Of a DNA stretch of 26,457 bases, positions 10,677-12,207 are shown piece by piece. How positions within the stretch are numbered: position 1 is the stretch's first letter; each line of letters starts with the position of its first letter. Made by a program: the position numbers and the translations under genes. The notes under the pieces are model-generated. The model saw nothing but the letters and a program-made list of their open reading frames with translations, was not told where the DNA came from and ran no database searches. This DNA comes from a virus: positions 1 through 26,457 of the IMG/VR virus record IMGVR_UViG_3300048589_000800; one strand, given 5' to 3'.

Positions 10677-11021
10677 TCAATTGTTTGACTGCATAAGCGA
10701 TCGAACCAGGTCAGACAGAAAAAACTGCCTTGGATGTCTCTCGATAACTCCATACTCATCCAGCGAAGCAAGAGATGTTGCAAATCTCCTGGGAGCCAAA
10801 CCCGTGTCCTTCAATGGCTCCTTCAAAAACATCCAATAGTAAGATCCGCTGATATTGACTGAAACCACGCCATCTATCTGCTTTCTGTTCGCACGAAGAA
10901 ATGCATATAACACGACTTTTTCCTCAGAAGTCGGACACCTTATGGGAAAGATCTCACTGAGTCCCGAACCAAAGACAAAGTCACAGCACTGCTCAAAAGG
11001 CATCCAAACGTGTCCGTTCAT
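10677..11021 (-). CDS. Winged-helix-like protein in the helicase-loader position
   Basis: This 114-residue protein's ATG overlaps the initiator stop codon as ATGA (11018-11021). The sequence has helices (SEEKVVLYAFLRANRKQ) and a pattern like a winged helix (LKDTGLAPRRFATSLASLDEYGVIERHPRQFFLSDL): a helix, a turn, a recognition helix and a two-strand wing with V-I-E-R. In lambda-type phages the gene immediately after the origin-binding initiator encodes the helicase loader. This protein is shorter than lambda P and shows no loader motif that I can recognise, so the position is suggestive only. It could instead be a DNA-binding regulator of replication. Confidence 0.68.
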   Translation of the reverse strand: MNGHVWMPFEQCCDFVFGSGLSEIFPIRCPTSEEKVVLYAFLRANRKQIDGVVSVNISGSYYWMFLKEPLKDTGLAPRRFATSLASLDEYGVIERHPRQFFLSDLVRSLMQSNN

Positions 11022-12118
11022 TCGCCTGCCTCTGATACGGGCCTCACAGAGCCTTCGCCCCGCGCCTGCATTCCATGCGCGACCAGACGATGGAGCTCCA
11101 ACACCTCGTAGTCAGTGATAATCCCGAGCACATCATGGGCTTTCATCTTTTGTACCTCCTGATGCATTTGCTTATACCAATAATGGATGTCGTTCCGTGC
11201 TATCCCCTTATCCCACTTCGGCCCAAGCTTTGGCATCAGCCTGAGAACCAGCTCCGGGTAGTAGCTGGCCAAAAGATCCCGATAGCTTCGATAGCCAGAG
11301 TTATCCCAAAAGTCCGGTTTCCCCTCGTAGCGGTTCCACTGAATCCAGGCATTGATGGAGAGATCCAGCAGGTGCTGATAATTCGTTTTGTCGTATCTGC
11401 TTATCTTCACCTTTTCAGCGTCCCCCATTTCAGGGGGGACTATAGGGGGGATTTCTTTGGAAACCGGGGAAGGAATAAGAATAGGAAATAGGACGGAACT
11501 GAGTTCCTCCCCCTCCGGAACTGAGTTCCCTCCCTCCCGGAACTGAGTTCCTCCCCCTGCTATCGTTTCCGAGTATTTTTCATCGCTCCCCACGGAACTG
11601 AGTTCCTCCCCTCCTGGGGATAATTCCTCATTAGCTGCTGACATTTGCTCATCACCCCCGGAACTGAGTTCCTCTCCCCCACTTGACCTGCCTTCCGGAA
11701 TGAGAAGTCTTTGCCGGGCATAGTCCACAAACAGCTTTGGAAGCATTCGATATGCGGAGATATCCGCCCCGCCATTACGCTTTTGCCGAGCGACTGAAAT
11801 GATCAGGCCCTTATCCTCCAGCTGGCGAAGAATCTTTCTCACTCCTCTGACCGTGAGTGATGTCCTTAACGCCATCTTTTTCATGCTGATTAGGACTGGT
11901 TTTGAAAACCACTGAAGCCGAAAGTCATGAAACGCACCGATTTGGCAAAGCACCGATTTTTCCCCTGTGCTTAGATCTGTGCGTTCCCATACTGCATCGA
12001 GGCATCTTCCGCCCCCTCGAGCTCGCTTGGAAATTTCCCGAGCAGCTTTTATTTTGGTTTGAAAAACAGATGGTTTGCGGTCTTGGAGAGAAATAACATT
12101 GCTTTTCTTCTTATCCAT
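11018..12118 (-). CDS. Replication initiator-like protein with winged helix and internal iterons
   Basis: This 366-residue protein has a winged-helix region of the kind found in phage replication initiators (lambda O, HTH_36 type). Residues about 68-130 read LQWFSKPVLISMKKMALRTS, then VRGVRKILRQLEDKGLIISVARQ. A low-complexity linker (about 145-225) of GGEELSS-like repeats follows. That linker is encoded by five copies of a palindromic DNA motif. The C-terminal domain (about 245-340) has a helical segment with LSINAWIQWNRYEGKPDFW and IHYWYKQMHQEVQKM. The role inferred is origin recognition and recruitment of the host replication machinery through the following gene product. The ATG at 12118 has only a weak ribosome binding site. 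A plus-strand terminator lies in its leader. Confidence 0.82.
   Translation of the reverse strand: MDKKKSNVISLQDRKPSVFQTKIKAAREISKRARGGGRCLDAVWERTDLSTGEKSVLCQIGAFHDFRLQWFSKPVLISMKKMALRTSLTVRGVRKILRQLEDKGLIISVARQKRNGGADISAYRMLPKLFVDYARQRLLIPEGRSSGGEELSSGGDEQMSAANEELSPGGEELSSVGSDEKYSETIAGGGTQFREGGNSVPEGEELSSVLFPILIPSPVSKEIPPIVPPEMGDAEKVKISRYDKTNYQHLLDLSINAWIQWNRYEGKPDFWDNSGYRSYRDLLASYYPELVLRLMPKLGPKWDKGIARNDIHYWYKQMHQEVQKMKAHDVLGIITDYEVLELHRLVAHGMQARGEGSVRPVSEAGE
11468..11672. repeat. Palindromic iterons inside the initiator gene, candidate replication origin
   Basis: The 13-bp sequence GGAACTGAGTTCC, an inverted repeat with a single central base, occurs exactly at 11495-11507, 11517-11529, 11539-11551, 11594-11606 and 11660-11672. 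A degenerate half-copy is at about 11615-11627. Start-to-start distances are 22, 22, 55 and 66. The copies fall in all three codon phases of the gene (encoding ELSS, GTQF and GNSVP), so the DNA, not the peptide, is conserved. A strand-biased purine-rich stretch (about 11468-11494) adjoins the array on its downstream side. The arrangement matches the lambda origin, where O-binding iterons lie within gene O next to an asymmetric, easily melted segment. Confidence 0.75.
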
Positions 12119-12207
12119 GATAGATACTCTTTTAACGGAATTTGTGAATGAAAGGGCTTACCAAGCCCAACCCAGCCAAGGTTTGCAGACCTTGGCTTTC
12201 TTTTTTT
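12099..12207 (+). ncRNA. Possible short antisense RNA opposite the initiator leader
   Basis: A weak promoter-like pair, TTGCTT (12099-12104) and GATACT (12123-12128) 18 bases apart, would start a plus-strand RNA near 12135 that ends at the terminator at about 12207. The RNA would be about 70 bases long and mostly two hairpins. This is like lambda oop, a short antisense RNA next to gene O. The terminator is clear; the promoter and the RNA itself are inference. Confidence 0.3.
12154..12207 (+). terminator. Plus-strand rho-independent terminator facing the initiator leader
   Basis: A first hairpin, GGGCTT-ACC-AAGCCC (12154-12168), is followed by AGCCAAGGT-TTGCAG-ACCTTGGCT (12174-12197; a 9-bp stem) and then a T-run with one C (12198-12207). 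The T-run is only on the plus-strand RNA side, so it ends plus-strand transcription. Every gene to its left for about 5.6 kb is on the minus strand, so any transcript it ends would be noncoding and antisense to the initiator or its leader. Confidence 0.7.

What the first reader, a model, noticed from the sequence alone, without database searches (positions are those of the whole stretch)
11495..11672. Palindromic iterons in all three codon phases of the initiator gene mark a likely origin
GGAACTGAGTTCC occurs five times exactly within 178 bp of the initiator gene. Relative to the gene start at 12118 the copies fall in codon phases 2, 2, 0, 1 and 2 and are read as ELSS, GTQF and GNSVP. Identical DNA read in different frames cannot be explained by protein selection or simple in-frame repeat expansion, so the DNA itself is probably the functional element. 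Lambda-type phages place O-binding iterons inside gene O. Here the unit is a 13-bp palindrome not known to me from any named origin.
Basis: partly seen in the sequence, partly recalled or inferred. Interest (0 to 1): 0.85.

Follow-up and report, generated by a model that had tools for sequence, protein, structure and literature searches.

The report
Phage replication origin hidden inside initiator gene
Five identical 13-letter DNA palindromes inside a phage's replication-initiator gene are most likely the landing sites where that protein starts copying the phage's DNA, and the same kind of site recurs in dozens of unrelated phages together with one matching amino acid, so origins could be predicted from sequence.

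Summary
Spacings are 22, 22, 55 and 66 bp, all multiples of 11. The reading as an intragenic, lambda-like origin is well supported. Scanning viral contigs with the DNA motif alone (GGAACNNNGTTCC pairs) gave 39 loci against 1 for the reversed control. By HMM, 29 of the 39 arrays lie in winged-helix initiator-like genes, in the linker after the DNA-binding domain; two more look so by eye. Across 34 dereplicated genes (14-27% identical to this one), iterons sit about 22 bp apart and AT-richer DNA follows in 34/34. A single recognition-helix arginine (R94 here) tracks the GG-AAC half-site: 26/28 against 2/17, p=5e-8, the best of about 1,225 column tests. Related initiators with other iterons keep the 22-24 bp spacing, as does lambda (20, 24, 23). 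The layout is known (lambda O, RepA_N plasmids); this iteron family, its breadth and its recognition residue were not found in the literature searched. Binding and origin activity remain untested. Verdict: a new variant of a known kind.

The parts
11018..12118 (-). gene for the 366-aa winged-helix replication-initiator-like protein that contains the array
   Evidence: ORF; HTH_36 E=4.9e-5, just below the curated cut-off; PHROG 270 and 8102 'replication initiation protein' E=2.5e-5 and 1.7e-4; predicted fold
11684..12019 (-). DNA-binding winged-helix domain, about residues 34-145
   Evidence: best-predicted part of the model; HMM of related initiators E=9e-29, the window being a seed member
11813..11851 (-). 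recognition helix, residues 90-102 (VRGVRKILRQLED region)
   Evidence: AlphaFold helix 90-102; alignment
11837..11839 (-). codon of Arg94, the residue that tracks the outer G of the GGAAC half-site
   Evidence: 26/28 GG-iteron initiators against 2/17 others, Fisher p=4.7e-8
11495..11507 (.). iteron 1 (last in gene order), phase 2, read ELSS
11517..11529 (.). iteron 2, phase 1, read GNSVP
11539..11551 (.). iteron 3, phase 0, read GTQF
11594..11606 (.). iteron 4, phase 2, read ELSS
11616..11627 (.). possible decayed iteron (GGGGATAATTCC), 22 bp after iteron 4 on the same 22-bp grid
   Evidence: read by eye from the sequence; low confidence
11660..11672 (.). iteron 5 (first in gene order), phase 2, read ELSS
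11469..11494 (.). AT-richer stretch next to the array on the 3' side of the gene, candidate unwinding element (65% AT over 26 nt; weak in this phage)
   Evidence: in 34 of 34 related loci the 60 bp after the array exceed the ORF's mean AT
11306..11704 (-). low-confidence (probably disordered) linker, about residues 139-271, with the iterons encoding residues 149-208
   Evidence: pLDDT below 50 in segments 139-247 and 249-271; residue numbers
11054..11389 (-). predicted helical C-terminal region, residues 244-355, presumed to recruit the replication machinery
   Evidence: secondary structure of a low-confidence model; function inferred

Best explanation
The array is the phage's replication origin, or its core, carried inside the linker-coding part of the initiator gene. 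Dimers of the N-terminal winged-helix domain each bind one 13-bp palindrome. Arg94 in the recognition helix reads the outer G of each GGAAC half-site. Because the sites are 22 bp (two helical turns) or other multiples of 11 bp apart, bound dimers stack on one face of the DNA, forming an O-some-like complex. That complex strains and opens the AT-richer DNA next to the array on the 3' side of the gene, where the C-terminal region recruits the replicative helicase machinery. The linker protein tolerates the repeats in any frame, so the DNA spacing and not the codons dictates the layout. Shown here: array, spacing, confinement, recurrence in initiator genes, AT bias across the set, residue-iteron association. 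Inferred: dimer binding, the specific Arg-G contact, opening, helicase recruitment.
For: 1) Exact array confined to this gene; the flanks between copies have diverged while the 13-mers stay identical. 2) Motif-only scan GGAACNNNGTTCC...GGAACNNNGTTCC: 39 viral loci against 1 for the reversed control. 29 of 39 are inside winged-helix ORFs by HMM, and L090 and L115 also look so by eye; the other 8 are two-copy arrays, seven of them 25-bp-spaced pairs. All arrays of 3 or more copies in that scan are in such genes. 3) Of the 34 dereplicated array genes, 30 match PHROG 'replication initiation protein' (phrog_270), 27 'replication initiation O-like' and 25 HTH_36. 4) In the 7 genes with GGAACTNAGTTCC, 19 of 22 spacings in the range 17-47 bp left free by the scan are 21-23 bp, p=6e-17. 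5) The 60 bp after the array are AT-richer than the ORF mean in 34/34 loci, p=1e-10. 6) Arg at the R94 position: 26/28 GG-iteron initiators against 2/17 others, p=4.7e-8; the next-best column has p=8e-4. Against DNA-selected GAAC iterons without the outer G: 1/7, p=1e-4. 7) Related initiators with different iterons keep the spacing: Treponema pTS1 34,23,22,23; Parabacteroides phage 24,24,22; Flavobacterium phage 22,24. 8) One phage with a 'VQK' initiator has a second, non-coding array of the same iteron followed by 40 bp of 88% AT DNA. 9) Whole-genome counts: all copies lie in the initiator-like gene in G001, G004, G006, G008, G017 and G018, and 3 of 4 in G009.
Against: No binding or replication data. 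The AT-rich stretch is weak in this particular phage (53% over 60 bp against 50% for the gene; 65% over 26 bp). No close homologue exists in the collections searched, so conservation in near relatives is untested. No recognisable helicase or loader gene follows the initiator; the downstream 114-aa ORF has no family match. Two GG-iteron initiators lack Arg (L095 Gln, L115 Lys), and one of the seven dereplicated GAAC non-GG genes (L135) and one other-iteron gene (L079) have it. The structure model is poor outside the N-terminal domain (mean pLDDT 52).
Confidence: 0.88

Rival explanations
1. The array is a binding site of the same protein, but for autorepression or silencing of its own gene rather than for replication initiation.
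For: Winged-helix proteins are often repressors; palindromic dimer sites are typical operators; an upstream Cro/C1-like regulator lies nearby.
Against: The sites are 450-620 bp inside the gene, not at the promoter; 3-6 helically phased copies followed by AT-richer DNA in 34/34 loci is an origin layout; the families matched are replication initiators.
Confidence: 0.07
2. The repeats are mobile REP-like palindromes (spread by a REP-associated transposase) that landed in a tolerant linker.
For: The same 13-mer occurs as inverted A/T-centred pairs inside ordinary genes of Parcubacteria and other MAGs (L020, L027, L032 and others), and L017 and L020 carry transposase-like ORFs (by eye); 25-bp-spaced GGAAC pairs in seven viral contigs look like this class.
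Against: Initiator arrays are direct (same centre in the window and most others), 3-6 copies at about 22 bp, confined to one gene per genome, and associated with the recognition helix; none of this is expected of REPs.
Confidence: 0.03
3. A simple tandem expansion or a protein-level repeat (ELSS/GTQF/NSVP) with no DNA function.
For: Three copies in a row are 22 bp apart with similar purine-rich flanks, so slippage may have contributed.
Against: A 22-bp unit is not a codon multiple; the same DNA is read in three frames; spacers diverged while 13-mers did not; unrelated genes share the 13-mer.
Confidence: 0.01
4. A partition (centromere-like) site bound by another protein.
For: Partition sites can be iteron arrays; two Treponema plasmid relatives sit near ParA genes.
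Against: No hit to ParA/ParB among the eight window proteins scanned; the array sits in the initiator gene itself and tracks that protein's recognition helix.
Confidence: 0.01

Closest known systems
Phage lambda O protein / ori-lambda
   Same: Origin in the middle of the initiator gene: four iterons that are inverted repeats, followed by an AT-rich region (PMC7466680); spacing 20, 24, 23 bp; iterons in codon phases 0, 2, 2, 1 and AT-rich 3' side.
   Different: Lambda iterons are 18 bp with an unrelated sequence; the window protein does not match Pfam Phage_rep_O (2 of 34 relatives do); no P-like loader gene follows here.
RepA_N plasmid initiators (pSK41 Rep)
   Same: N-terminal winged helix, central linker encoded by the ori DNA and dispensable as protein, C-terminal domain; four Rep boxes inside rep (PMC5703833); plasmid Rep and DnaD N-domains are among the structural matches, Z 7.5-8.0.
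   Different: No RepA_N Pfam match; Rep boxes differ; the structural Z-scores are no better than for generic winged helices.
pPR9 Rep (HTH_36 domain fused to the pSK41-type C-terminal domain)
   Same: A reported HTH_36 (pfam13730) initiator whose rep region supports autonomous replication of a mini-replicon (PMC5703833).
   Different: Plasmid, Staphylococcus; its iterons could not be examined here (record absent).
DnaD-like / PHROG 270, 678 and 1032 phage initiators
   Same: Same kind of N-terminal domain; 30 of 34 array-bearing proteins match phrog_270.
   Different: Families are defined by protein only; no iteron of this type is described for them in the papers found.

Membership tests
lambda-type phage initiator with intragenic origin (architecture) | iterons that are inverted repeats inside the initiator gene, between the DNA-binding and C-terminal parts | tested here: met
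lambda-type phage initiator with intragenic origin (architecture) | iteron spacing of about two helical turns (20-24 bp) | tested here: met
   22, 22, 55, 66 bp here; lambda 20, 24, 23
lambda-type phage initiator with intragenic origin (architecture) | AT-rich region flanking the array | tested here: inconclusive
   weak in the window; 34 of 34 loci as a set
lambda-type phage initiator with intragenic origin (architecture) | initiator binds the iterons | not testable with these tools
   only indirect: recognition-helix association
Pfam Phage_rep_O (PF04492) | sequence match to the family model | tested here: not met
   no match at E below 0.1; 2 of 34 relatives match
Pfam RepA_N (PF06970) | sequence match to the family model | tested here: not met
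   no match at E below 0.1
HTH_36 (PF13730) winged helix | score above the gathering threshold | tested here: inconclusive
   23.5 bits against cut-off 25, E=4.9e-5; 25 of 34 relatives match at E below 0.01
PHROG 270 replication initiation protein | profile match | tested here: met
   E=2.5e-5, N-terminal domain only; 30 of 34 relatives
REP/REPIN mobile palindromes | inverted pairs scattered through the genome | tested here: not met
   five direct copies, one gene, none elsewhere in the record

The most novel reading that the evidence does not exclude
A large, unrecognised group of phage winged-helix initiators shares one origin grammar: 13-bp palindromic iterons of the type GGAACNNNGTTCC, helically phased at about 22 bp inside the linker of their own gene with AT-richer DNA after them. 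The outer base is set by a single recognition-helix residue (Arg for G; Gln and others for C/T), so that origins and initiator specificity can be predicted from sequence across phyla.
Probability: 0.6. Interest if true: 0.72.

Novelty: new variant of a known kind. Interest (0 to 1): 0.6.

Why it matters
Origins of most phages known only from metagenomes are unmapped. If the array is the origin, a motif-plus-spacing search inside winged-helix genes would locate replication origins in many uncultured phages. The Arg94 association gives a direct, cheap test of how these initiators choose their sites. It also bears on how one stretch of DNA can satisfy protein-coding and origin constraints at once, and on why unrelated initiators share one iteron.

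Tried and rejected
Close homologues of the 366-aa protein: none in 50,697 phage records by tblastn and none in viral contigs by peptide patterns. PDB sequence searches: only generic winged helices or an irrelevant phosphatase match. Structural neighbours: RepA and DnaD N-domains are present but tied with many generic winged helices, so not used as evidence of family. GC skew: negative over nearly all of the record, with no inflection at the array. Literature search for the 13-mer: one irrelevant paper. Vibrio relatives found through the C-terminal motif (L082, L084) are DUF4373 proteins, and the detector found no array in them or in L083. L024 (two copies, 46 bp apart) was left out of the statistics because its HMM match was poor. 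pPR9 was not held. Caveats: the winged-helix HMM was seeded with array genes including the window, and at least one spacing of 20-25 bp was imposed by the scans, so the spacing test uses only the window and the six genes found with wide gaps. The residue test is not corrected for descent beyond dereplication.

Full report
WHAT IS THERE. The window (a 26,457-base virus record) encodes on the minus strand a 366-aa protein (12118-11018). GGAACTGAGTTCC occurs five times at 11495, 11517, 11539, 11594 and 11660, and nowhere else in the record even with one mismatch. It is a palindrome with 6-bp arms and one central base; all copies have the same central base. Read by the gene, the copies are in phases 2,2,0,1,2 (ELSS, ELSS, GTQF, GNSVP, ELSS). 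The distances 22, 22, 55 and 66 bp are all multiples of 11. Codon-order shuffles never give more than 2 copies of such a word, against 5 observed. The spacers differ from each other while the 13-mers are identical.

THE PROTEIN. Residues about 34-145 are a winged helix (AlphaFold, confident only there). HTH_36 scores 23.5 bits, just under its cut-off of 25; PHROG 270 and 8102, 'replication initiation protein', match at 2.5e-5 and 1.7e-4. The iterons encode residues 149-208, within a very low-confidence linker (residues 139-271, pLDDT mostly below 50), followed by a predicted helical C-terminal region. No close homologue was found.

THE SAME ARRAY ELSEWHERE. A scan for two GGAACTNAGTTCC copies found other arrays inside winged-helix initiator-like genes. 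In viral contigs these are L011, L012 and L013; in MAGs they are L019, L029 (Pyramidobacter) and L031 (Saprospiraceae). In several of these genomes every copy lies in that one gene (G001, G004, G008, G017, G018). Including one-mismatch copies, the spacings are L019 22,22,22,22; L031 21,22,22,22; L012 23,21,22; L029 67,35,35,21,22,22. Of the 22 spacings in the range that the scan left free (17-47 bp), 19 are 21-23 bp (p=6e-17).

A WIDER FAMILY. Loosening the centre to GGAACNNNGTTCC (pair 20-25 bp apart) gave 39 viral loci; the same pattern read backwards gave 1. Twenty-nine of the 39 arrays lie in winged-helix ORFs by an HMM of related domains (E<1e-3), and L090 and L115 look alike by eye. The eight remaining are two-copy arrays, seven of them 25-bp-spaced pairs, probably another kind of element. 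A second scan (GAACTNAGTTC pairs) gave 18 further loci and two already seen, many in the same kind of gene. After dereplication 34 array genes remain; the other 33 are 14-27% identical to the window protein in a rough full-length alignment. Thirty match PHROG 270 (replication initiation), 27 the O-like PHROG 678, and 25 HTH_36. The array follows the winged-helix domain, a median of 11 residues after it. 28 of 34 use more than one codon phase. The 60 bp after the array are AT-richer than the ORF in 34 of 34 (p=1e-10); the 60 bp before it are not significantly so. In the window this AT bias is weak: 65% over 26 bp.

THE RESIDUE THAT TRACKS THE SITE. In an alignment of the domains, the position of Arg94 in the recognition helix is Arg in 26 of 28 initiators whose iterons start GG and in 2 of 17 whose iterons do not (Fisher p=4.7e-8, best of about 1,225 residue-column tests, next 8e-4). 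Against the cleanest contrast, iterons with the same GAAC core but another outer base, it is 26/28 against 1/7 (p=1e-4). Genes with VQ at this site (L128, L129, L131) have C or T outside GAAC; L095 is an exception. This is what a dimer reading the palindrome through its recognition helices predicts. It is association across diverged genes, not a contact map, and is not corrected for descent beyond dereplication.

RELATIVES WITH OTHER ITERONS. Winged-helix initiators found by protein similarity carry different repeats at the same place with the same spacing: Treponema pTS1 (34,23,22,23), a human-gut phage (34,23,23), Parabacteroides phage PD491P1 (24,24,22) and Flavobacterium phage FCOV-S2 (22,24). 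In the Eubacterium eligens plasmid the gene is followed by a ZapE-type ATPase and a DnaB-like helicase. One phage (IMGVR_UViG_3300035501_000180) with a VQK initiator has a second, non-coding array of the same iteron at 17-, 15- and 22-bp steps. It is followed by 40 bp of 88% AT DNA: the same module without any coding constraint.

MECHANISM. Most likely the initiator dimer binds each palindrome, dimers on the 22-bp grid stack on one DNA face, the AT-richer DNA 3' of the array opens, and the C-terminal region recruits the helicase machinery. The array, spacing, confinement, recurrence, AT bias in the set and residue association are shown; binding, opening and recruitment are inferred.

COMPARISON. 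Lambda has the same plan: four inverted-repeat iterons in the middle of gene O followed by an AT-rich region (PMC7466680), spaced 20, 24 and 23 bp, in codon phases 0,2,2,1. RepA_N plasmids have it too: Rep boxes lie centrally in rep, and that part is dispensable as protein (PMC5703833). The same review reports that an HTH_36 initiator domain (pPR9) supports autonomous replication. Mycobacteriophage RepA origins have been suspected within or next to repA (PMC7157519). So the kind is known. The iteron, its recurrence in unrelated initiators and the Arg association were not found in the papers searched, a limited open-access library. It works like lambda O, but is not filed as a Phage_rep_O or RepA_N member because those models do not match.

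VERDICT. Observation confirmed; interpretation supported; new variant of a known kind; experiments needed are listed under next steps.

Noticed in passing
L016, L018, L020, L027, L030, L032, L033, L035-L038, L040, L042, L044, L047, L048: Candidate-phyla (Parcubacteria, Moranbacteria, Nealsonbacteria, Falkowbacteria, Giovannonibacteria) genomes carry inverted pairs of the same 13-mer (A-centred then T-centred or the reverse, 19-24 bp apart), mostly inside ordinary conserved genes, often read ELSSEASELSS. They look like REPIN-type mobile palindromes; L017 and L020 carry ORFs resembling REP-associated transposases (by eye).
   Followed up: partly
L139:2515-2580, same contig as L141: A phage with a VQK-type initiator has a second, intergenic array of the initiator's iteron next to 40 bp of 88% AT DNA, a possible second origin.
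   Followed up: partly
L041:1610-2047 and L023:6507-6821: Lamprobacter and Halochromatium have 14 and 7 copies of GGAACTGAGTTCC in arrays at 32-33-bp steps, outside any recognisable initiator gene; function unknown.
   Followed up: no
L007:3446-3492, L008:1050-1096, L010:3153-3199, L009:9758-9806: Phage contigs with a 34-36-bp repeat of the palindrome, apparently in a gap between genes, flanked by TAAACC/GGTTTA-like ends; possibly a regulatory or terminator element.
   Followed up: no
L091, L092, L093, L094, L098, L104, L112: GGAAC-type palindrome pairs exactly 25 bp apart, not in initiator genes, in several viral contigs; a separate repeat class.
   Followed up: no
window 12175-12205: A strong hairpin (GCCAAGGTTTGCAGACCTTGGC) followed by a T run lies just upstream of the initiator start; it reads as a terminator on the + strand, toward the divergent repressor gene.
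   Followed up: no
window 10677-11021: A 114-aa ORF overlaps the end of the initiator gene by four bases and has no family match; a candidate helicase-recruiting partner.
   Followed up: partly
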